A stretch of 64,000 bases of DNA, taken from NCBI RefSeq assembly GCF_003351785.1, contig NZ_CP031230.1, forward strand, positions 992,001 to 1,056,000, read 5' to 3'. Position 1 is the first letter of the stretch, and each line of letters starts with the position of its first letter. Positions 6,021 through 54,250 of the stretch are shown one piece after another. Both the position numbers and the translations under genes were made by a program. The DNA comes from Sporosarcina sp. PTS2304. GTDB taxonomy: Bacteria > Bacillota > Bacilli > Bacillales_A > Planococcaceae. The notes below the pieces were generated by a model. The model was not told the origin of the DNA and did no database searches. It was given only the letters and a program-made list of their open reading frames with translations.

Positions 6021-6071
6021 ATAAACTCATTGCTTAGAATGTTTCGTGTTTTCTATTAACTACATATGTAT

Positions 6072-6160
6072 TTCTATCAAGAGAGATGGAGGGACTGGCC
6101 CTATGAAATCTCGGCAACATTATTGTGCCAAATCCAGCAAGCACTGCTTGAAAGATAGAA
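6072..6160 (+). ncRNA. SAM-I (S-box) riboswitch
   Basis: Conserved S-box core: AGAGAGATGGAGGGACTGGC, then CCCTATGAAATCTCGGCAAC, GTGCCAAATCCAGCAAGC and TTGAAAGATAGAA. The closing helix P1 pairs TCTATC (6073-6078) with GATAGA (6154-6159). S-box RNAs bind S-adenosylmethionine and, when occupied, favour the downstream terminator. It controls the MFS transporter at 6294 and probably msrA, which links both to methionine or SAM status. Confidence 0.93.
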
Positions 6161-6205
6161 AGGGTTCATCGATAGTATTCTAAATGAATATGAATCTATG
6201 TTAAC

Positions 6206-31258: not shown

Positions 31259-32506
31259 ATGATCACTAGTGAACTTGCTGAGAAAAGCATACTAGGCACG
31301 ATGTTACAGGAAAATTATTTGATAATGGATAGCGGGATGGAAGAGTGGTATTTCCAAAAGCAACTCCATAAAAATATTTTCATGAGTATGTGTGAACTGG
31401 CTCGTAAAGACAAGCCCGTAGATTATATTACGCTAGTCGTCGTCAGAGAACCTGCAGAACTAGGCGGTGCCAATTACTTAGCAGAACTGAACAATTATGC
31501 GAATGCAGCACGTTTTGACGAATACAAAGAACTCGTCATCGAGCAGTGGAGAGCACTAGAGAAAGGGCACATCCTCCAGCAAGCACTGCAAAACGACTGG
31601 ACGATCGAACAAATTCAAAACGCTTTTGACGCATTGCAGTTGAATCACTCCACAGCACCGCAAACATCGATCCAAGCGGACTTACTCGCCCAATACGAAC
31701 GACCTTTCATACCGCTTGAGAAACTCACGGGTATTTCTACTGGATTACACAGTATGGATTATTTGTTAAATGGCTTTCAACCTAGTGAATTCATCATTAT
31801 CGCCGCAAGACCTTCCATGGGAAAAACGGACACATTGAATCATTTTGCGTTAACGGCCGGCATTCAAGGTCATTTGCCGATCATCTTTTCTCTTGAAATG
31901 AGCCGAACGTCCATCACCGATCGTCTCATCGCCAGTGCAGGATGGTACAGTCGTTTGAAAATGCGTGATCCTCACAAACATTTTACAGAAGAACAGAAGA
32001 AGAAGTGGCCAAATGCCTTGGATTACGTAGCTAGATCAAATATTCATATCGACGACCGAAGTGGGTTGAAAGTGAGCGAAATAAAAGCAACAGCTCGAAA
32101 AATTATAAAAGAAACGCCAGACAAACGCCCGATTATTTTCATTGATTATTTACAGATTATCCGACCGGAACATCCCGCAGACAATCAAACACAAGCAATC
32201 GGCCAAATTAGCGCAGATCTGAAAACGTTAGCGAAAGAATTTAACTGTCCTGTCGTCGTCTTGTCGCAACTATCACGGGCAGTCGAACAACGTCAAGATA
32301 AACGGCCGATTATGAGTGATCTACGCGACTCAGGAAATATCGAACAAGACGCAGATGTTGTATGTTTCTTGTATCGCGAAGACTACTACACCTCTACACC
32401 GGCTGATGAATTGGATATGTATATCGCCAAGCACCGCAACGGACCGATTGGCAATTTCACTGTTGGCTATTATAAAGACACAGGTACACTGACAAATAAT
32501 AACTAG
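31259..32506 (+). CDS. DnaB-like replicative helicase, phage type
   Basis: 415 residues. Hexameric 5'-3' helicase with Walker A ARPSMGKTDTL (near residue 183), Walker B PIIFIDYLQII (near 294), the H3 region PVVVLSQLSRAVEQR and the arginine finger region MSDLRDSGNIEQDADVV. The N-terminal domain (about 100 residues) is shorter than in chromosomal DnaB, as in phage and plasmid helicases. It is cotranscribed with the DnaD-like gene. The host's chromosomal DnaB would be encoded elsewhere, so this is part of a prophage-derived replication module. Confidence 0.9.
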   Translation: MITSELAEKSILGTMLQENYLIMDSGMEEWYFQKQLHKNIFMSMCELARKDKPVDYITLVVVREPAELGGANYLAELNNYANAARFDEYKELVIEQWRALEKGHILQQALQNDWTIEQIQNAFDALQLNHSTAPQTSIQADLLAQYERPFIPLEKLTGISTGLHSMDYLLNGFQPSEFIIIAARPSMGKTDTLNHFALTAGIQGHLPIIFSLEMSRTSITDRLIASAGWYSRLKMRDPHKHFTEEQKKKWPNALDYVARSNIHIDDRSGLKVSEIKATARKIIKETPDKRPIIFIDYLQIIRPEHPADNQTQAIGQISADLKTLAKEFNCPVVVLSQLSRAVEQRQDKRPIMSDLRDSGNIEQDADVVCFLYREDYYTSTPADELDMYIAKHRNGPIGNFTVGYYKDTGTLTNNN

Positions 32507-42079: not shown

Positions 42080-42087
42080 TTTATAGA

Positions 42088-42124
42088 AAGTCCCCAAGCT
42101 ATTTTTATTAGCTTGGGGACTTTT
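42088..42124 (+). terminator. Terminator of the SASP gene
   Basis: Stem AAGTCCCCAAGCT / AGCTTGGGGACTTTT, nearly perfect, between the SASP gene and the CRISPR array. Confidence 0.9.
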
Positions 42125-42165
42125 AGGTTTATGTGTGGTGGGGGAGGATTGATGGTGTTATTTTA

Positions 42166-45100
42166 ATTTCAATCCACGCTCTTCGTACAGAGAGCGACAA
42201 GGTCGCACATCTGGTTGCATGTATGTTTATCAGAATTTCAATCCACGCTCTCCATACAGAGAGCGACTGAACGATGCGCTAGATCGCTTCGCTCGCATGT
42301 CAATTTCAATCCACGCTCTCCATACAGAGAGCGACCGTCCGTAAATTCAAATTCTGCCATTTCACCGCGATTTCAATCCACGCTCTCCATACAGAGAGCG
42401 ACTTATGCGTTTTGTAAAAAAAGCCGTCCGAACGAATTTCAATCCACGCTCTCCATACAGAGAGCGACAGGAGCCAGCAGAATGGAACGATACTACCTAC
42501 TATTTCAATCCACGCTCTCCATACAGAGAGCGACCACCAAGAAAAGTTCGTTGTCACGAACATAGAAATTTCAATCCACGCTCTCCATACAGAGAGCGAC
42601 GTGGCAGTCTATTACATACACCTATTTTATATAAAGTATTTCAATCCACGCTCTCCATACAGAGAGCGACTGAATCGCATCACTGGTATATGACTATGAC
42701 GACAAATTTCAATCCACGCTCTCCATACAGAGAGCGACCGGAAAAGAGATACGTGTATTATCGGGTGATATGATTTCAATCCACGCTCTCCATACAGAGA
42801 GCGACAGTTTATTTCTATCGCTGAAAATGGCGTGCGAATATTTCAATCCACGCTCTCCATACAGAGAGCGACGGGTGCAGGAAATCGTTCTAGAAGTTTC
42901 AGGGGACATTTCAATCCACGCTCTCCATACAGAGAGCGACTCTGTTATGCCACAAAATGACTGTGATAATAATTATTTCAATCCACGCTCTCCATACAGA
43001 GAGCGACAAAATTGGCATAATATGGTCAAAAAATAAATAAGATTTCAATCCACGCTCTCCATACAGAGAGCGACTATTGGCCATTCGTCTATTACGTGCT
43101 CTTCTTCGCTATTTCAATCCACGCTCTCCATACAGAGAGCGACGATAATTCTCCCTCAAAAATATATAATTCCACATCAATTTCAATCCACGCTCTCCAT
43201 ACAGAGAGCGACTAGAAAGGGTGATTTTGGATTGAAACGCACACCTATTTCAATCCACGCTCTCCATACAGAGAGCGACCCTCAAAATCTTGCACTGGAT
43301 TTAAGGCTATTTCTATTTCAATCCACGCTCTCCATACAGAGAGCGACCAATAAAAACTTGGAAATCGGAGTAAAACATGAATTTCAATCCACGCTCTCCA
43401 TACAGAGAGCGACCTGATCGCTTAGGCGGTCGTTTTCTGCTGCAAAGATTTCAATCCACGCTCTCCATACAGAGAGCGACAATCACTTTCGCTCCGGTTT
43501 ATCATATTAACGGAATTTCAATCCACGCTCTCCATACAGAGAGCGACTCACCAACGAAGCCAACGAGATCCCCTTCTGCTATTTCAATCCACGCTCTCCA
43601 TACAGAGAGCGACAAAAGGAGGGTTATCTATGATTCTCACACTCGGAATTTCAATCCACGCTCTCCATACAGAGAGCGACGACAACTTCTTCCTCAGGCA
43701 CGTCAAAACCAAATATTTCAATCCACGCTCTCCATACAGAGAGCGACTGATTAAAAATGAAAACAATCATTGTAGACAAAAATTTCAATCCACGCTCTCC
43801 ATACAGAGAGCGACAATGATATTTGCACCTGTAATTAAGGCGAGTAGGTATTTCAATCCACGCTCTCCATACAGAGAGCGACAAAGACTCAACGTGAATG
43901 GCAACTACAGCCCAGGATTTCAATCCACGCTCTCCATACAGAGAGCGACGTAACCGCCTCATCGTCTCGGATTTCTCGGCTATTATTTCAATCCACGCTC
44001 TCCATACAGAGAGCGACGGAAATCGGGTTTATGTTTAAACACTCACACAATATTTCAATCCACGCTCTCCATACAGAGAGCGACTTTAAGAAGCGGTTGG
44101 ACACGCGAACAACCGGATATTTCAATCCACGCTCTCCATACAGAGAGCGACTCATACGCTCAAACAGTCGATCTTCGGGAATAAAGATTTCAATCCACGC
44201 TCTCCATACAGAGAGCGACCCGAACCTTTATCAATCGACTCGATCGGCACGTTATTTCAATCCACGCTCTCCATACAGAGAGCGACGCGGCCGCTGCATA
44301 ATACAATAAATCATCCGCATGATTTCAATCCACGCTCTCCATACAGAGAGCGACTTTAGGACAAACACAGGCGAGATTGTACCTGATGAATTTCAATCCA
44401 CGCTCTCCATACAGAGAGCGACGAATAAAAAAAGTATTACTAACTTCGGATACGGTATTTCAATCCACGCTCTCCATACAGAGAGCGACGACAAAAGTTG
44501 TTGTTCTTGTTGCTCTTGATAAAATTTCAATCCACGCTCTCCATACAGAGAGCGACAGAGGACCATAAACATCTATACATCAGCAAGGAAATTTCAATCC
44601 ACGCTCTCCATACAGAGAGCGACCAATTGGGATGACGCAACGGATACATGGACACTAATTTCAATCCACGCTCTCCATACAGAGAGCGACTTGTGCGTCC
44701 TAGTACGTTGTCCCAGTTATGGTTATTTCAATCCACGCTCTCCATACAGAGAGCGACGTCGTTCAGCCCTAACCCTATGACTCCTAGTCACGATTTCAAT
44801 CCACGCTCTCCATACAGAGAGCGACCTCTTAGTCGTTTATCATCGTTACCATTCCCTAGAATTTCAATCCACGCTCTCCATACAGAGAGCGACGTCGTTC
44901 AGCCCTAACCCTATGACTCCTAGTCACGATTTCAATCCACGCTCTCCATACAGAGAGCGACCTCTTAGTCGTTTATCATCGTTACCATTCCCTAGAATTT
45001 CAATCCACGCTCTCCATACAGAGAGCGACAAGCAGGTTACCGAATTGTTATGCACGTACACGATATTTCAATCCACGCTCTCCATACAGAGAGCGACGGC

Positions 45101-46987
45101 CCAGCAGACGCACGCGCGAAAGCGAAGTCTTGATTTCAATCCACGCTCTCCATACAGAGAGCGACCCATGTTGCTGACTCCTTTCTGTCGTATTTTGTTC
45201 GATTTCAATCCACGCTCTCCATACAGAGAGCGACACCTGCAAGAGCTGTGCAATGTTGCCTGCAAAGTATTTCAATCCACGCTCTCCATACAGAGAGCGA
45301 CGGTTACTCTTTTTACATATTTACAAACTATATTTATTTCAATCCACGCTCTCCATACAGAGAGCGACATATAAAACAGGCACAATTAGACAAGCTGTAA
45401 TATTTCAATCCACGCTCTCCATACAGAGAGCGACGCTTTATCATCGGAAAAGCAAAATCATTTATTAGTAATTTCAATCCACGCTCTCCATACAGAGAGC
45501 GACAAAGGTAGCACCGAAGTTATCTAACAGTAAAGCATTTCAATCCACGCTCTCCATACAGAGAGCGACTTACTCGCACCGTATCACCCAACTCGATCGA
45601 CTATTTCAATCCACGCTCTCCATACAGAGAGCGACACCAATACAGTTGTAAAAAGAAACCACTCAGTCGATTTCAATCCACGCTCTCCATACAGAGAGCG
45701 ACTTGAAAGGTATTTTATCTATTTACAATGTTACCATTTCAATCCACGCTCTCCATACAGAGAGCGACGCAAATCCCAAGCCTTTCGATGTAACTCATTC
45801 ATCGATTTCAATCCACGCTCTCCATACAGAGAGCGACATCAGATATCAGAAAATACGGTATCGACGGAGAAATTTCAATCCACGCTCTCCATACAGAGAG
45901 CGACCAGTCGGTTCTGCAAGGGCAATGTAGATAGCCGGAGATTTCAATCCACGCTCTCCATACAGAGAGCGACCATCGGCAGAGGCAGATTTCGGAGATG
46001 AAGTGGTCATTTCAATCCACGCTCTCCATACAGAGAGCGACTTAACAGATGCTTGCTTTCGATCAAACAGCGTAATATTTCAATCCACGCTCTCCATACA
46101 GAGAGCGACCAACATGATCTAATAATTCATCTATTTTAACTTGTATTTCAATCCACGCTCTCCATACAGAGAGCGACAAAGGGTTGATCCAGCAATATCA
46201 CCGTGAACAGATATTTCAATCCACGCTCTCCATACAGAGAGCGACTAAAAGGGTTTGAATTACCAAAGCCGGGCAAATATATTTCAATCCACGCTCTCCA
46301 TACAGAGAGCGACAAACTTTTTCGATTTCTGTGCTACCTTTTTTCTTATTTCAATCCACGCTCTCCATACAGAGAGCGACAAAAATCTCACACTCTCCTT
46401 TAGCTCGAATTTTCATTTCAATCCACGCTCTCCATACAGAGAGCGACTTTGCGATTTCCAACTTTTCGGCGTTCATTTTTTTATTTCAATCCACGCTCTC
46501 CATACAGAGAGCGACTTTAAATTTTTTATTTCGCCGCCATCAAGTAGGTAATTTCAATCCACGCTCTCCATACAGAGAGCGACGGTTATAAATATTGGCC
46601 AGGGGAGGTAAGACGATATTTCAATCCACGCTCTCCATACAGAGAGCGACAGAGATCGGAATCGAAAATCTACCAACTTTAGCAATTTCAATCCACGCTC
46701 TCCATACAGAGAGCGACAGTTATATGTATAGCCCTCGAACTCCACACGATTATTTCAATCCACGCTCTCCATACAGAGAGCGACTCGGGCGCGGTACCCG
46801 GCTGTATCCTGGTAAAACTATTTCAATCCACGCTCTCCATACAGAGAGCGACCACGCAGGCGGCATAGATGTGATTGATTTTGCGGATTTCAATCCACGC
46901 TCTCCATACAGAGAGCGACCTTCTGTGGCGTGCCGCTTAAAATTATCTCCAGTAATTTCAATCCACGCTCTCCATACAGAGAGCGAC
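42166..46987 (-). CRISPR. Type I-C-like CRISPR array, 72 repeats and 71 spacers
   Basis: I counted 72 copies of a 33-bp repeat. On the minus strand it begins GTCGCTCTCTG and ends GTGGATTGAAAT, the layout of type I-C repeats; the inner arms GCTCTC and GAGAGC make the crRNA hairpin. Spacers are 33-37 bp, mostly 34-35. The copy at 42166-42198 has two changes (CTTCGTAC in place of CTCCATAC), which marks the trailer end, so the leader is at the high-coordinate end and transcription is on the minus strand. All other repeats look identical by eye. Spacers at 44758-44792 and 44826-44860 recur at 44894-44928 and 44962-44996. No cas gene flanks the array. Open frames inside it come from repeat periodicity. 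Confidence 0.98.
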
Positions 46988-47150
46988 TACGAGATGTTGT
47001 ATCTTCTCCCTCCCAGTGTACTACATAAAGTGAAAAAAATGAATAGTCTATCAATTAGAGGTTATTTTCTGTTGGAAAACGCCAGAAAAATGCGCGAACC
47101 TCCTGGTGATTTCGTGGGCACTTAGGGTTCGCACATTCAAATGTGAAAAA
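46988..47150 (-). promoter_or_regulatory. CRISPR leader
   Basis: AT-rich sequence directly upstream (minus strand) of the first repeat. It contains an inverted repeat: GCGAACC at 47094-47100 facing GGTTCGC at 47126-47132, about 25 bases apart, inside a stretch that on the minus strand reads GTGCGAACCCTAAGTGCCC then CCAGGAGGTTCGCGC. From memory, type I-C leaders carry such a GTGCGAACC...GGTTCGC motif. It is the likely integration and promoter region. Confidence 0.7.
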
Positions 47151-47243
47151 AGTAGAACCATACCCTTTTACTACAAACCCACAGAAAGAAAAAGCTCATA
47201 TAGATCAATACTGTTTCTTACACAAGTACTTTTTAAGAACTAG

Positions 47244-47305
47244 CTATCATACAAACAGCCAGCAAACCAAACAGTTGGAATAGTTTCACGCTGTTAGTAT
47301 GATAG
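47244..47305. repeat. Inverted repeat overlapping the yghU promoter
   Basis: CTATCATACAAACAGC (47244-47259) and GCTGTTAGTATGATAG (47290-47305) match in 15 of 16 positions, 30 bases apart. The right arm covers the -10 TATGAT of the promoter of the glutathione transferase gene, so it may be an operator. Confidence 0.6.
47275..47303 (+). promoter_or_regulatory. Promoter of the yghU-like gene
   Basis: TTGGAA (47275-47280), 17 bases, TATGAT (47298-47303), 30 bases before the ATG at 47333. Confidence 0.6.
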
Positions 47306-47332
47306 AGTCACTACATAATAGGAGGCGTTACT

Positions 47333-48124
47333 ATGACAAAATATGAATTACCAAACGTATGGAAGTGGGAAGAAGAGAATTCAAATAGATGGGGGAATCG
47401 TCCGACAGCGGGTGAACGGTTTGAGCAAACGTTACCAGTCGGAGAGGCACCGCTCCAACTCTATTCACTGGGAACTCCAAACGGTATAAAAGTGACAATT
47501 ATGCTGGAAGAGTTAAAAGAATTGGATGTTGACGGTGCAGATTATGATGTATATGAAATCAATATTGGAGCGCAAGAACAATTTGGTTCAGATTTTGTCA
47601 AGATCAATCCTAACTCCAAGATTCCTGCCTTGGTCGATCAAAGTCAAAGTCCGCGTGTGGAGATTTTTGAATCAGGATCGATTTTGCTGTACTTGGCTGA
47701 GAAATTCAAACAACTGATTCCGACAGATATACATGGACGAACAGAAACCCTTAATTGGCTATTCTGGCAAATTGGGGCGGGTCCTTATATTGGTGGAGGG
47801 TTTGGCCACTTTTTCGCTTATGCGCCGGAACCTATGAAATATCCGATTGATCGTTTTACTATGGAAACGAAACGTCAACTAGACTTACTGAATAACACAT
47901 TAGCTAAGCGTTCTTATATTGCGGGTGATACGTATACGATTGCAGATATCGCCATATGGTCTTGGTACGGACGTCTAGCTTTAGGGAAGTTGTATGAAGG
48001 CTCGTATGAATTTTTGGACATGGATGAATATACCCATCTCTTGGAATGGTCTCAACGTATCGAAAAACGACCTGGCGTTCAAAAAGGTCTTGCGGTAGAG
48101 TATCTATCATATACGTCAACTTAA
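47333..48124 (+). CDS. yghU: Glutathione S-transferase family protein, YghU-like
   Basis: 263 residues. N-terminal thioredoxin fold with LYSLGTPNGIKVTIMLEE and INPNSKIPALVD, then FESGSILLYLAEKF, and a helical C-terminal domain with YIAGDTYTIADIAIWSW. YghU-type proteins are disulfide-bond reductases using low-molecular-weight thiols. The last codons come from an IS231-type element: before insertion the end would read VEYLSLSK, now it reads VEYLSYTST and stops inside the IS end. Activity is probably little affected. ATG behind TAGGAGGCGTTACT. Its original terminator is now 1.6 kb away at 49803. Confidence 0.9.
   Translation: MTKYELPNVWKWEEENSNRWGNRPTAGERFEQTLPVGEAPLQLYSLGTPNGIKVTIMLEELKELDVDGADYDVYEINIGAQEQFGSDFVKINPNSKIPALVDQSQSPRVEIFESGSILLYLAEKFKQLIPTDIHGRTETLNWLFWQIGAGPYIGGGFGHFFAYAPEPMKYPIDRFTMETKRQLDLLNNTLAKRSYIAGDTYTIADIAIWSWYGRLALGKLYEGSYEFLDMDEYTHLLEWSQRIEKRPGVQKGLAVEYLSYTST
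48097..48107 (+). repeat. Target site duplication of the IS231-type element, left
   Basis: AGAGTATCTAT, repeated exactly at 49744-49754. The 11-bp length fits IS231-type (IS4 family) elements. Confidence 0.85.
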
Positions 48125-49743
48125 GGTTTATTCCTTCGTTTTTACTCGTCAAGTGACGTTCCACTTCTTGATTTGTATGGTTTGAATTTATAGGAATACG
48201 GGAATGTCTTTAGTAACCTTTCACTTTATGGATTTGAAGGCATAGTAAATAAACCCCTGTATGTTCTTTTTTAAAAAATAGGTGTGTTTATGTTAGCCAG
48301 TGAATAGGACCGGGTTTCTTTACGTTTTTCGGGCCATTGCTGGCTAATATATTGAGTAACTCGTCCATCACTTCCCTCCACTTGGGAGAAGCACGTGCCT
48401 GCCAAAGTTTCCACACCCGTTCACTCACTTCTCGGATTCCAATCCGCTCACTTAGAATCAGTTGTTTCTCTTTCCAGAAATAATGACGTATTTGATACGT
48501 AAGCAGCACACTCAATAGGAATATAATTAACTCCGCATACAAATGACACAGCCATCTTTCTGCCTTCATATTTCGATAACGTGCTACCCCTAAGTCAGAC
48601 TTCCATGACTTGAAGAGGAGCTCAATTTGCCATCTGTAGCGATAGAGTGAACAGATTTCCGACGCTGGAATTTCTGCTGGCAGATTAGTCACATAGATAG
48701 ATATGCCAGACAAGTCTTTTACTTTTTGTTTAATTTTTCCCGGCTTTGTCTGTTTGCGTCGCTTAATACGAAATTCCTGACGTTTTTGTTCTTCCGCCGT
48801 CATCCGATAGATTACTAAGCGAGAGGGCATTCTCTCGTGCTTACCTATATATACGCGCGGGAATTCTCTGCTTTCTCCTGGTTTCATGGTCTGTATTTCC
48901 TCTTCTAGAAACAATCGTATATGAGCGTACTTTTTCATAATCTCTCCGTTTTTGTGATAACGGGGATGAGGCGAATCCACATAAAACATAGTATCTGCAC
49001 GTGCACGTGATACATAAAATGCTTCTTTTTGTTCAATTTCCCTAAACAGATCACATTTGAAATAGCCCAGATCTTGAAGAAGCAGATCATCTTTCTGCAC
49101 GTTTTCTAAACGGCTGAGTCCTGAAAGAGAATCTCCCGCTTTTCCAGGCTGGAGTTCAACATAACAAAACTTTCCTGTAAGATAATCAAATTCTAATTGA
49201 CACTTGACACCTGCACCCGTGGTCCCGGGGAACATGACGTGAAGCGCGTCAGGCAATTTCACGGAGCTGCCATCCAAAATCCTCATGCTTCTAAACGGGT
49301 ATGTGGTGGCGATGGGAAGCTTAGAGAAGGCCAATTTGGATTGACTTTCAAACAATCGGAGAAAGATCCGTTCCATGAACTGAACCGCGTGTTCGTTAAA
49401 CCGTTTATCCAGTGCTTGCTTAGAGAGCGTCAGACTCGGTTTGGCCAGCTTCGCACACAGATGAGTTAATGAACTTTCTGCGATCTTACCCGGCTCGGCA
49501 AAGAGAAGTTGAAGAAAAGTATTTATATCCAGCTTGCGTTTCCGTTGAATAAACTTTGTCTCTCTAGCGATAGAGGAAAGTTCTTTTGGGTGACAGAAGA
49601 GTAAACAATCGACGCTGCTGGTAAAAAGGATGTTTAGGCTTCATGATGTATACCTCCTTATATTTGGTGTGTTAAAGATATATACCAACAAATAAAGGGA
49701 ATCAATCGTAAAGTACTAAATTTTTCTTAAGTTGACGTATATG
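48108..49743 (-). mobile_element. IS231-type insertion sequence (IS4 family), 1636 bp
   Basis: Both ends carry the 18-bp inverted repeat CATATACGTCAACTTAAG, close to the IS231 end CATGCCCATCAACTTAAG (recalled). The element is flanked by an exact 11-bp duplication and lies in the 3' end of the yghU-like gene. Removing the IS and one duplication restores VEYLSLSK and a stop codon. Length is close to the ~1650 bp of IS231. The single transposase gene is on the minus strand and broken by a frame change. Confidence 0.9.
48288..49644 (-). pseudogene. IS231-type transposase, frame interrupted near the start
   Basis: DDE transposase. ATG 49644 follows TAAGGAGG, but after 26 codons the frame meets TAG because of an AAAA run (plus-strand TTTT at 49584-49587). 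Omitting one base at that run makes one frame to 48288, giving about 451 residues, and the 69 codons upstream of the later ATG 49376 then read as a normal IS231 N-terminal region (SKQALDKRFNEHAVQFMERI). Catalytic parts are intact: LDGSSVKLPD, LLQDLGYF and the YREK region YRYRWQIELLFKSWKSDLG. Either a null mutation or a site of frameshifting or transcript slippage. Confidence 0.85.
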
Positions 49744-49754
49744 AGAGTATCTAT
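49744..49754 (+). repeat. Target site duplication of the IS231-type element, right
   Basis: AGAGTATCTAT, identical to 48097-48107; the following CGCTAAGTAAGTAA is the displaced original 3' end of the yghU-like gene. Confidence 0.85.
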
Positions 49755-49802
49755 CGCTAAGTAAGTAATTTTTAAAGTAAGGTGAGGCTGCGACATAACA
49801 TG

Positions 49803-49842
49803 CAAAAAGCGTAAAGGATACTTCATCCTTTACGCTTTTTTA
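49803..49842 (+). terminator. Terminator displaced from the yghU-like gene
   Basis: Stem CAAAAAGCGTAAAGGA / TCCTTTACGCTTTTT with TACTTCA loop. It lies about 35 bases after the original stop codon. The remaining bases to 50044 hold only a decayed copy of the GCTTCAGCTC terminator seen at 30313. Confidence 0.75.
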
Positions 49843-50044
49843 ACGTAGTGACTGCAATAGTGATTCGTAGGATGGGGAATCTACCATGACGCCAGAAGCA
49901 GCATGAATTTACATGTATCTACATATTTTGTAGAGATAAAAATGTTTAGAAGGAATTAAAAAAATTGCTGAAAGAGTTGGGGCATATAGCTTCAGCTCTT
50001 ATTTGTCGTGTGTTTTATCTGCAAATAAAAATATTTTAAAAAAC

Positions 50045-50082
50045 GATGTATCATACAAAAAGCACTCTATATAGCGGATGAA
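50045..50082 (+). promoter_or_regulatory. Conserved upstream element, copy 3 (decayed)
   Basis: GATGTATCATACAAA, then CACTCTATATAGCGGATGAAG. Same arrangement as at 29901 and 30383, with several changes. Confidence 0.4.
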
Positions 50083-50128
50083 GAGGCGAATGACTATCAC
50101 TTACAAAAATAGCGAGGAGGACGAAACG

Positions 50129-50613
50129 AGGAGTTTATTAGTGGATGAAACACCTTTACAAGTACTGCCATTGTTAGCATAAGACGTATGGCTGAATGGG
50201 GCGATATTTTTACAGCAACTAAGTTTTCGATCATTTGATTTCAAAAAATGTGCGGGATAAATATGTTTGGGTGTGTAAAACGTTTAACGAATGGAAAGAA
50301 GAGTTTCCGTTATAGTAGAGCAATACGATCAAGCGCCTCATTTACGAACTCGAGGAAAAACGTATGGTGCATACGACATCTGCGACGACCGAATCTGATT
50401 AAAAGAAAGACAAATGAAAGCCATCGTCCGAAGAATTATAAAAAGAATCTAGACAAAAGTCCAATTATCATCATTGATTCTCTACAAACCATCAGATCCG
50501 AACATCGCATCGTCAACCAAACTCAATCCATCGGCGGATTAACTGTCTATTACAGCAAAGCCACCGGCAAGCTCGGTGACATTGACTATCTAACTGACAA
50601 AGGAGAGTGTTGA
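50129..50613 (+). pseudogene. Decayed and internally deleted copy of the DnaD-like / DnaB-like gene pair
   Basis: The first part reads LLVDETPLQVLPLLA, stop, DVWLNGAIFLQQLSFRSF, clearly the start of the DnaD-like protein at 30470 with in-frame stops and frame changes. The last part reads RRIIKKNLDKSPIIIIDSLQ and HRIVNQTQSIGG, the Walker B region of the DnaB-like protein at 31259, then jumps to YYSKATGKL, its C-terminal end. About 1.5 kb of the original pair is missing. It is a second, dead copy of the same module. Confidence 0.8.
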
Positions 50614-50614
50614 A

Positions 50615-50785
50615 ATGGTTACTGTAGCTCAATGTCATAGAGGCGAGCACACCAATGTACTAGAAAAGCGAAAAGAAGTATATGAAGCTGCACGGGCTAG
50701 TCATCCCGAACATTGGATGCGTGACACAAAAAACTGGAATCCGCGCGAACAGGTAGCCTTAAATCCGATGTGTGAAAAGAAATAG
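50615..50785 (+). CDS. Small protein resembling a transposase C-terminal end, 56 residues
   Basis: The frame begins MVTVAQCHRGEHTNVLEKRK and ends with ARASHPEHWMRDTKNWNP and VALNP. The pattern of a YEAARASHPE helix followed by an aromatic/basic loop and LNP resembles the last residues of some integrase-core transposases. It could be a remnant, though the ribosome binding site AAAGGAGAG before the ATG is good. It follows the dead replication module directly. Confidence 0.45.
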   Translation: MVTVAQCHRGEHTNVLEKRKEVYEAARASHPEHWMRDTKNWNPREQVALNPMCEKK

Positions 50786-50997
50786 GTTGACTGATCACAC
50801 CCACTGTACCTAGTGGCTTGAATGGAAAGAACGCTTTTCCTTTCGATTCAAGTCACTAGGCGGGCAAGCGCAGCGCGGTAGCTTGGATTAGACATGGAGA
50901 GTTGAATTTTATTGAATTAGGTATTTGAGGAAAGTTAATCAGCCTGATACGACATCTATATTGACAACTATCGATTGCGATGTAAATAGTAAAATAA

Positions 50998-52914
50998 CTA
51001 ACGTTTTTCTTTATTGAAATAAACTAAAGAACCTTCTGCCTTCGCTGCATTAAAATTTAATTTTAAATTAAGCTCGATGGACTTCCTAGTTGCTTGTAGA
51101 TATTGTATAGCTAAATCTATATCTAAAGAGACCTTGATATTATTAATAATAGGAATTTCATATTTTCCTTCTAGGCTTTGATATTTACTTAACAAATAAT
51201 TAATAGCAACCTTATTTAATTCTTTTATATTAACATTAATTTGACTAGCATTATATCTAATATTTTCCGAATTAGTTACGAACCAAAAAGATGGTTTGAA
51301 AAAAGTTTCTTCTAAATATAAGTTATAGTCTTTAATTCTTTCATTATAAAGTTCCTTAACCTCGGGATTTTCATAATATAAAAAGAAAGAATCACTTCTA
51401 ATATTTGTAACAATCAAGTTATAATTTTTACAATCCATATTTTCTATGAAAATCGAAAGTTTATTTATCCGATCTTCATGGGTATTAGTTATTCTCATTT
51501 TTGATAGGCAGAATTCTTTGATGATGTATTTATTAATTTCACTAATCATCGTTTCCTTCAAACTATCTACAACACTTTTAATGTTTTGTTCATGATCAAA
51601 TACAATCGTCGGAACTGAGATAGAATATGATAATTCTTTATCTAAGGTTAAAGTAGTGTCATTTTTAAAATTGATTAGTAGTGACTTACTCCTAACATCA
51701 ACTAGTCTTTCTTTTATAAGGTCTTCCTTCAATCCCAGATCCTTACTAATACCAATACAATCATTAATTTCATGTTCTACGTAAAGTTTTTTTAGTTTAT
51801 GTAAACCATCGTATAATTCTTGAGCTACTTCTTGATTTATACCAAATCCAAAATGGCTTTTAAAAACTTTATAGCGTTCAACTAAAGACTCCACTGAATC
51901 AGATTCAAAATTCATTAAGTAACTAGAAATTTCTTCTTTGTCGAGTTGTTCAAAAAAACCACTATTTGTCGAAGATTCAATAAATACAAGAAATTCTTTA
52001 ATAACATTCTCCATTATCATCCACTTGAATATGATAGTATCGCCATGCATTCTTTCCCATCCAGTTAATTCTTTGAAAGCTGAACTGGCAAAAAGAGATA
52101 AGTCATTTCGTGTAACCGAAAAGTCATAACCTATTCTGTTAAATACATCCAATTCGAGAAATGCTTTGAATTTATTTCCGTCAACTAAATCTTCTTTATA
52201 TATTAAATAATATAGATATATAGCTAAGTTAAAGATAATTTCCATAGATTCATTTTTTATACCGTTTAGAAAAAATAAATCTTCAGTGACATTATTAAAA
52301 TTTTCAATATCTCGATTATCAATCATTGTTTTTAAAACCCTTTGTGTAACTAGTTTTGCGGTATCTTTATTTCTTGATAATACTAATAAAGATATATTCT
52401 TAGAGTAACCTTTAAGGATATCTTCTTTTTTATAACCTGGTAAAAGTTTGTTTTTGTAAATAATATTATAAAAGGCAGCATGGCTCTGAGTTACGAAATT
52501 CAACTGTGAGCTGTCACCTTCATCTGCTGTTTCACGTAAAATTTGAAGTAATTTGTAGATAGATTGCAGATAATTCTCATTAATAAACTCACTATTTTCT
52601 AAGTGTTTTAAAATAGCTTTAATTTCGTCATCTAAATAGACGAAGTGCCCTTGCGTGAAAACTGTTCCATATAAATTTAAAATTAACTCCATTGCCTCGT
52701 CCAATTTATCTTTTTCGAAACATTTTTCAAATAGTTCTGTAATTCTTTCATCGATTAGATTGGAAATCTTTTTAGTAATGTCAGTTGATTCATTAGATAA
52801 AATAATTTCATATAGCTCTTTAAAAAGTGAAATATTTTTTTGTAACAAACCGTATCTATCTCTCTCGATTGCATCGATTGAATGGATATAAAGCTGCTCT
52901 ATTATTTTATTCAA
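50998..52914 (-). CDS. Large soluble protein of unknown function in an AT-rich two-gene unit
   Basis: 638 residues, mostly helical, rich in Leu, Asn, Lys and Glu, with no signal peptide, membrane segment or nucleotide-binding motif that I can see. It begins MNKIIEQLYIHSIDAIERDR. The C-terminal quarter has alternating patterns (YEIPIINNIKVSLDIDLAIQ) that suggest a beta-containing domain. Its ATG overlaps the stop of the membrane-protein gene upstream by four bases, so the two are coupled. Base composition is far more AT-rich than the neighbours, with AAA, AAT and TTT codons dominating, which points to recent transfer. Accessory functions, including defence, are possible but unproven. Confidence 0.75.
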   Translation of the reverse strand: MNKIIEQLYIHSIDAIERDRYGLLQKNISLFKELYEIILSNESTDITKKISNLIDERITELFEKCFEKDKLDEAMELILNLYGTVFTQGHFVYLDDEIKAILKHLENSEFINENYLQSIYKLLQILRETADEGDSSQLNFVTQSHAAFYNIIYKNKLLPGYKKEDILKGYSKNISLLVLSRNKDTAKLVTQRVLKTMIDNRDIENFNNVTEDLFFLNGIKNESMEIIFNLAIYLYYLIYKEDLVDGNKFKAFLELDVFNRIGYDFSVTRNDLSLFASSAFKELTGWERMHGDTIIFKWMIMENVIKEFLVFIESSTNSGFFEQLDKEEISSYLMNFESDSVESLVERYKVFKSHFGFGINQEVAQELYDGLHKLKKLYVEHEINDCIGISKDLGLKEDLIKERLVDVRSKSLLINFKNDTTLTLDKELSYSISVPTIVFDHEQNIKSVVDSLKETMISEINKYIIKEFCLSKMRITNTHEDRINKLSIFIENMDCKNYNLIVTNIRSDSFFLYYENPEVKELYNERIKDYNLYLEETFFKPSFWFVTNSENIRYNASQINVNIKELNKVAINYLLSKYQSLEGKYEIPIINNIKVSLDIDLAIQYLQATRKSIELNLKLNFNAAKAEGSLVYFNKEKR

Positions 52915-53444
52915 CCTTTCTCCTCTTTCTGGGTTTTTGAGCCCTTGAGCTTTGTAGTGAATTCATTTATAATGCTCTGTCTAACTTTATTTTCAATTGT
53001 ATCGAAATTTACTAAAAGTGAAAAAGTTTGATACATAAGAGTTGAGACGCTTAACAATGAAATAAATAAAATAAAAACAGTTCCAAACAACCATTCGTAA
53101 GCAACGAAAAAATAGTTAGCAAAAATTAATGCAATAAGCACGAAAATTATTTCTATTTTAGATAGAAAAAATGCTTTTTCTTCAATAAATACAAAGTGCA
53201 TTACATCTTTCCCAAATATCTTTTCTTTTATAAATCCAACTGTTAAAGCCACAACTGCGATACTTATTGATATTGCAACAGCTTGAACTTGCCATATAGC
53301 TAAAATAAGATTATTAATATTTTCACTTTCTATTGTTAGAAATTTGATATGAAATGTGTCGAAAAGCCAAGTACCGGATTTCGCAAGTAATAGAATTAAT
53401 ATTAGTGTAATAACCATTCGGAAAAAGGATGTCTTTGTAAACAT
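52911..53444 (-). CDS. Four-helix membrane protein, partner of the 638-residue protein
   Basis: 177 residues with four hydrophobic segments (FFRMVITLILILLLAKSGTW; VQAVAISISIAVVALTVGFI; IEIIFVLIALIFANYFFVAY; FILFISLLSVSTLMYQTFSL) and a basic C-terminal tail ending KLKGSKTQKEEKG, likely in the cytoplasm. It would place the coupled large protein at the membrane. Family not recognised. ATG behind AAGAGGTGAAAAATG; the upstream region to 53600 is AT-rich and probably holds the promoter. Confidence 0.75.
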   Translation of the reverse strand: MFTKTSFFRMVITLILILLLAKSGTWLFDTFHIKFLTIESENINNLILAIWQVQAVAISISIAVVALTVGFIKEKIFGKDVMHFVFIEEKAFFLSKIEIIFVLIALIFANYFFVAYEWLFGTVFILFISLLSVSTLMYQTFSLLVNFDTIENKVRQSIINEFTTKLKGSKTQKEEKG

Positions 53445-53608
53445 TTTTCACCTCTTTAAAACTTTTTATAAACAATTTAAGGCATCTTTGTGTTAATAAA
53501 GCGCACCTGTGCTCTGCAAAAATACGACACTATTCAGACAACCGATAGATAAATAATTACGCAAGAAAATTCTACGACTACATTCCGAGGGTTCTTGTAT
53601 CTTGGCCC

Positions 53609-54046
53609 TCAATCCTCCCTAACAACCAACCGAGCCAACCCATTCTCCTCAAACTCTTCCTCATACCGTTCCTCAATCTCAAGTAGCCGCTTAAATCGCT
53701 CATCCTTATCCCTCGGAACAACTGCCTCATTCGCTAAATCTCTTTCAGCCAGTCGACTAGAAAGTTCATTCCAAAACACATCATTATCATTCACATCAAT
53801 GATCGGCTGCAATTGATTTTCATATGCTTGGGTCGGATAGTATTCATTGTGGTCTCGCTCAAATGTAATGATGTCATCATAGCCAAAATCCTTCGCAAAT
53901 GAGTTGATATATTGGTACAGTTCTTCATACTCCTTGATCAGTTGCTCGGGATTTCTAGAAGAATTGGCTGTCCATTCGCCTAAGTGGACCAAGTCAAGTA
54001 AGTGTTTGAATTGCTTCTTTGTGAAATTAATTTTCATTATACTCAT
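53609..54046 (-). CDS. Hypothetical protein, 145 residues
   Basis: Soluble and acidic, starting MSIMKINFTKKQFKHLLDLV, with aromatic-rich middle (YDDIITFERDHNEYYPTQAY) and an acidic helical end (FKRLLEIEERYEEEFEENG). It looks like a conserved bacterial protein of unknown function, and I cannot name a family. The ATG has AAGGAGAATGAGT upstream. Composition is close to the chromosome average, unlike the AT-rich pair next to it. Confidence 0.7.
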   Translation of the reverse strand: MSIMKINFTKKQFKHLLDLVHLGEWTANSSRNPEQLIKEYEELYQYINSFAKDFGYDDIITFERDHNEYYPTQAYENQLQPIIDVNDNDVFWNELSSRLAERDLANEAVVPRDKDERFKRLLEIEERYEEEFEENGLARLVVRED

Positions 54047-54250
54047 TCTCCTTTATTCATCTGCGATTATCGTATCACAAGAATCTGTATTTGCAGTAAA
54101 TCCATTCCGAATAAAAACTATGAAAATTGAATTTCTTCCTTTTGACGCATCGAATCCATCTACACTACACTCAATGAACAACGAGTAATATTCTCTTATT
54201 TTAGCTAAAAAAATGATACAATTATATTAACAGAATTGGAGGCTATCGCC

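What the first reader, a model, noticed from the sequence alone, without database searches (positions are those of the whole stretch)
42166..47332. A 72-repeat type I-C CRISPR array with leader but no cas genes
Type I-C arrays normally sit directly downstream of cas3-cas5-cas8c-cas7-cas4-cas1-cas2. Here the leader side (46988-47332) is followed by a glutathione transferase gene, and no reading frame in the 64 kb resembles a Cas protein. The repeats are almost all identical and the leader motif is intact, so the array was active recently. Either it is served in trans by a cas set elsewhere, or the cas operon was lost. An IS231-type element now lies 1.1 kb from the leader.
Basis: partly seen in the sequence, partly recalled or inferred. 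Interest (0 to 1): 0.75.

Follow-up and report, generated by a model that had tools for sequence, protein, structure and literature searches.

The report
Remote-served type I-C CRISPR array
A long bacterial immune-memory array that looked stranded without its enzymes is very probably still in use, because one complete set of matching enzymes sits 1.2 million bases away in the same chromosome, beside a second array that holds an identical recent memory.

Summary
Window 42166-46987 holds 72 repeats and 71 spacers of a type I-C CRISPR array; 71 repeats are identical, the leader lies on the right, and no cas gene is in the window. The genome is a Sporosarcina chromosome (3.50 Mb, one contig). It has one complete, intact I-C operon (cas3-5-8c-7-4-1-2) 1.23 Mb away, with its own array of 102 repeats.

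Main evidence: spacer 2 of the window array and spacer 3 of the cas-side array are the same 34 nt, each between its own array's repeat type. The repeats differ at 4 of 33 bases, but the changes keep the hairpin, and the 11-nt crRNA handle is identical. Both leaders carry the same 42-bp motif. The mappable targets of two window spacers lie next to TTC, the I-C PAM. The same repeat occurs away from cas in two congeners, both with I-C cas elsewhere.

Remote arrays served in trans are known, so this is a new example of a known kind. Less ordinary are the tolerated repeat divergence, a leader lineage shared with a cas-distant array in another species, and motif-to-repeat distances in steps of about one DNA turn.

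The parts
42166..42198 (-). Trailer-end repeat, 2 changes from the consensus (oldest end)
42235..46987 (-). 71 identical 33-bp repeats and 70 spacers of the I-C array; transcription inferred right to left
46853..46886 (-). Spacer 2, identical over 34 nt to spacer 3 of the cas-side array (C1:2272060-2272093)
46785..46819 (-). Spacer 3, matches a conserved phage helicase gene, TTC on the PAM side
45030..45064 (-). Spacer 29, matches a Vibrio phage with 4 mismatches, TTC on the PAM side
44758..44996 (-). Tandem duplication of a two-spacer block (spacers 30/31 and 32/33)
46988..47135 (-). Leader; right limit somewhere between 47134 and about 47242
47092..47133 (-). Conserved 42-bp inverted-repeat motif of I-C leaders, 104 bp from the first repeat

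Best explanation
This is a second, remote array of a single type I-C CRISPR-Cas system. Cas4-Cas1-Cas2, made from the operon 1.23 Mb away, adds new spacers at the leader end of both arrays. Cas5c cuts both transcripts at the base of the shared hairpin and leaves the same 11-nt handle. Cas8c-Cas7-Cas5c with Cas3 then uses crRNAs from both. Shown here: the anatomy, the single intact I-C cas set, the shared spacer, the repeat-stem compensation, the shared leader motif, and TTC next to the few mappable targets. Inferred: transcription, processing, and interference by window-array crRNAs.
For: Intact cas3-5-8c-7-4-1-2 at C1:2272.4-2280.3 kb, the only I-C Cas1 found; no type III RAMP protein and no second cas3 over cut-off. 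Identical 34-nt spacer near the leader of both arrays, each between its own repeat type. Repeats differ at 4 of 33 bases with the stem kept by compensation and the last 14 bases identical. Same 42-bp leader motif in both leaders. TTC beside targets of window spacers 3 and 29. The two other genomes with this repeat also hold I-C Cas1 away from the array. 71 of 72 repeats identical.
Against: No expression or acquisition data exist here. Only one spacer is shared out of about 170. Only two independent window protospacers could be mapped, both imperfect. The repeats are not identical, and a large survey found equal acquisition only for arrays with identical repeats (PMC12814883). One cas-side spacer (c26) has a target without TTC.
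Confidence: 0.88

Rival explanations
1. The array is a relic: its own cas operon was lost, or it came by transfer together with its spacers, and it no longer gains spacers in this cell line.
For: It sits in a block that varies between species and has no cas beside it. A related array in G017 shows decayed repeats at its old end.
Against: 71 of 72 repeats are identical, the leader motif is intact, and spacer 2 equals spacer 3 of the cas-side array, which dates activity to the same period. No cas remnant was found.
Confidence: 0.07
2. The shared spacer was copied from one array to the other by recombination, so it does not show shared acquisition.
For: Spacer duplications do occur here: a tandem two-unit block in the window array.
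Against: A copied tract would have to end within 14 identical repeat bases on one side and 7 on the other, since flanking repeats and neighbouring spacers are those of each array. The cas-side array shows independent re-capture of the same protospacers with different lengths (c6/c54, c28/c43).
Confidence: 0.08
3. Another CRISPR system in the genome, such as a type III effector, uses this array.
For: Some type III systems share arrays with I-C systems elsewhere (PMC8482600).
Against: No RAMP-family protein in the genome, only one I-C Cas1 and one cas3 over cut-off; repeat and handle are of I-C form.
Confidence: 0.02

Closest known systems
Remote (isolated) CRISPR arrays served by a distant cas locus (PMC5294841; PMC12814883)
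   Same: Array far from cas, same subtype as the only cas set in the genome, leader present, long and regular.
   Different: The repeat is not identical to that of the cas-side array (4 of 33 bases), yet one recent spacer is shared.
Type I-C system of Bacillus halodurans (PMC3890593; PMC6519985)
   Same: Same cas gene content, same hairpin-plus-tail repeat form, TTC/GAA PAM, Cas5d processing expected.
   Different: 33-nt instead of 32-nt repeats; here two arrays with different repeat types and one far from cas.
Cas-distant array of Sporosarcina obsidiansis (G056 C24:8997-10113, L040)
   Same: Same repeat, 104-bp motif spacing, leader groups with the window leader at 0.97 support.
   Different: 17 repeats, other neighbouring genes, no spacer in common.

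Membership tests
Type I-C CRISPR array | Partly palindromic repeat of about 32 nt ending in GTGGATTGAAAT | tested here: met
   compared with the B. halodurans repeat quoted in PMC3890593
Type I-C CRISPR array | Unique spacers of regular length (33-37 nt) | tested here: met
   71 spacers, 69 distinct
Type I-C CRISPR array | Leader with the motif of cas-side I-C leaders | tested here: met
Type I-C CRISPR array | TTC PAM beside targets | tested here: inconclusive
   Two window spacers with TTC, too few and not exact
Type I-C CRISPR-Cas system | cas3-cas5c-cas8c-cas7-cas4-cas1-cas2 in the genome, all intact | tested here: met
   not adjacent to the window array
Remote array served in trans | No cas genes near the array but a matching set elsewhere in the genome | tested here: met
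Remote array served in trans | Acquisition or crRNA processing depends on the distant cas set | not testable with these tools
   Indirect support only: shared spacer
True orphan array | No cognate cas genes anywhere in the genome | tested here: not met

The most novel reading that the evidence does not exclude
Cas-distant I-C arrays form their own lineage that moves between genome positions and species without cas genes and depends on whatever I-C cas set is resident. Members would share the CTCTCTGTATGGAGAG repeat core and a leader about one helical turn shorter than cas-side leaders (104 against 113-117 bp). It would include this array, the S. obsidiansis C24 array and perhaps arrays of G154 in another genus.
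Probability: 0.2. Interest if true: 0.55.

Novelty: new member of a known kind. Interest (0 to 1): 0.36.

Why it matters
It turns an apparently stranded array into a natural test of how much repeat and leader change one Cas4-Cas1-Cas2 complex tolerates: two long arrays, repeats 12% different with a preserved stem, one machinery, one common spacer. It also shows how a neighbourhood search can wrongly call such an array orphan. The stepwise motif-to-repeat distances suggest that a protein bound at the leader motif must face the integrase on the same side of the DNA, which can be tested directly.

Tried and rejected
Cas operon lost at this site: no remnant by tblastn; G012 has the same neighbours and no cas there. 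Type III use: no RAMP protein. Protospacer of the shared spacer: none in 68 Sporosarcina genomes beyond the two arrays themselves; one IMG/VR contig matched the first 20 bases but not the rest, taken as chance; further viral scans gave nothing. Window-type repeat on viral contigs: none. Plasmid and phage searches with whole arrays mostly returned other I-C arrays through repeat similarity.

Full report
Observation. The window array has 72 repeats and 71 spacers (42166-46987). 71 repeats are identical and the trailer copy has 2 changes. In crRNA sense the repeat is GTCGCTCTCTGTATGGAGAGCGTGGATTGAAAT, on the - strand. The variant repeat at the left end and the leader motif at 47092-47133 give the same polarity. 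The neighbours are a spore protein gene, a GST gene and a DDE transposase. Nothing in the window resembles the seven Cas proteins of this genome.

The genome. The window lies at 992001-1056000 of a single contig of 3,495,830 bases. The named relative found by Cas8c is Sporosarcina obsidiansis, 82% identical, so the genus is taken as Sporosarcina. One Cas1 of the I-C kind is present at 2272731-2273747. Around it lies a complete operon in the standard I-C order with all frames open. Next to cas2 is an array of 102 repeats of GTCGCTCCCTGTATAGGGGGCGTGGATTGAAAT, 101 of them identical. No other cas3 passes the cut-off and no RAMP protein is found.

Sharing. All spacers of both arrays were compared. 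Exactly one is common: window spacer 2 and cas-side spacer 3, 34 of 34 bases, close to the newest end in both. Each sits between repeats of its own type, so a copied tract would have had to end inside 14 identical repeat bases on one side and 7 on the other. The cas-side array also holds two protospacers captured twice with the same PAM-side end but different lengths (c6/c54 and c28/c43). In S. obsidiansis two arrays on the cas contig share a spacer with one mismatch. Repeated capture from one site is thus seen in these systems without copying. The simplest reading is that one Cas4-Cas1-Cas2 fills both arrays.

Repeats. The two repeats differ at positions 8, 15, 17 and 19. Positions 8 and 17 pair and changed together; 19 changed an A-U pair to G-U; 15 lies in the loop. 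Across nine related repeats the stem is always paired, with two pairs showing changes on both sides, and slid controls do not show this. The repeats are related to each other, so the shuffle count is not a probability. The 11 bases that become the crRNA handle are identical. Cas5d cuts at the base of the hairpin and recognises the hairpin and the 3' tail (PMC3890593), so one Cas5c could process both transcripts. That step is inferred.

Targets. Window spacer 3 matches a conserved phage helicase gene with 2-8 mismatches in many phages; the closest matches are all preceded by TTC. Window spacer 29 matches a Vibrio phage with 4 mismatches and TTC. Cas-side spacer c60 has TTC in phage Javan308, while c26 has ACA. 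Shuffled spacers gave no hits in the first set; reversed spacers gave one in the second. TTC is the canonical I-C PAM (PMC8482600). Only two independent window protospacers could be tested.

Relatives. With up to one mismatch the window repeat occurs in 3 of 61 Sporosarcina genomes. A second, somewhat different search of 261 genomes of the family found no further exact carrier, but found variants with a changed stem pair in other genera. All three carriers have I-C Cas1, which 11 of 68 Sporosarcina genomes have over the cut-off; p = 0.003 if genomes were independent, which they are not. In none of the three does the array lie next to cas: 1.23 Mb away here, about 464 kb away on the same contig in G017, and on another contig in S. 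obsidiansis. The three sites have different neighbours. In G012 the left neighbours and the far right flank are shared, while the 12-kb block from the array to about 54 kb is replaced by other genes. The array therefore sits in a variable block.

Leaders. A 42-bp motif (TGCGAACC..AAGTG..CA..AAA..C...GGAG..TCGCGC in these genomes) is found in nearly all I-C leaders examined. Its distance to the first repeat is 104 bp in the window, in S. obsidiansis C24 and in two arrays of G154; 113-117 bp in most others; 124-125 bp in four arrays with 32-nt repeats; 135 bp in one poor match. The steps between classes are 10.2 and 10.8 bp. This fits one helical turn, but the values follow lineages, so there are few independent shifts. 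The window leader and the S. obsidiansis C24 leader group together with support 0.97, apart from the cas-side leaders of their own genomes. That hints at a lineage of cas-distant arrays. It is not proven: the G154 leaders do not join them in the tree.

Known context. Isolated arrays that may work with distant cas loci are described (PMC5294841). A large survey finds that arrays with identical repeats acquire spacers at similar rates whatever the distance from cas, and that I-C arrays mostly lie close after cas (PMC12814883). The present case fits that picture but with non-identical repeats. I rate it a new member of a known kind.

Noticed in passing
leaders of the window, L012, L039, L040, L045-L051, L172, L174, L176, L177: Distance from the I-C leader motif to the first repeat falls at about 104, 114, 125 and perhaps 135 bp, steps of about one DNA turn.
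   Followed up: partly
L172 (G154:C94:1-20000) and L174 (G160:C4:74001-94000): Two and four I-C-type arrays within 20 kb with no Cas homologue in the stretch read; whether cas genes lie elsewhere in these genomes is unknown.
   Followed up: partly
L012:7406-14264: The cas-side array has two protospacers captured twice with equal PAM-side end and different length (c6/c54, c28/c43).
   Followed up: yes
L012:9996-10027: A cas-side spacer matches 32 of 32 bases of an aminoglycoside adenylyltransferase gene on a small Macrococcoides plasmid.
   Followed up: no
42080-54120: The block with the array, yghU and the IS element is replaced by about 2 kb of other genes in congener G012, so it is a variable site.
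   Followed up: partly
43213-43246: Spacer 56 contains 10 bases of the repeat in reverse (TTTCAATCCA), perhaps chance, perhaps taken from another CRISPR array.
   Followed up: no
6071-6161: SAM riboswitch on the + strand.
   Followed up: no
31259-32506: Protein with a weak match to PADLOC mad8 (E 1.3e-07); no other part of that system was looked for.
   Followed up: no
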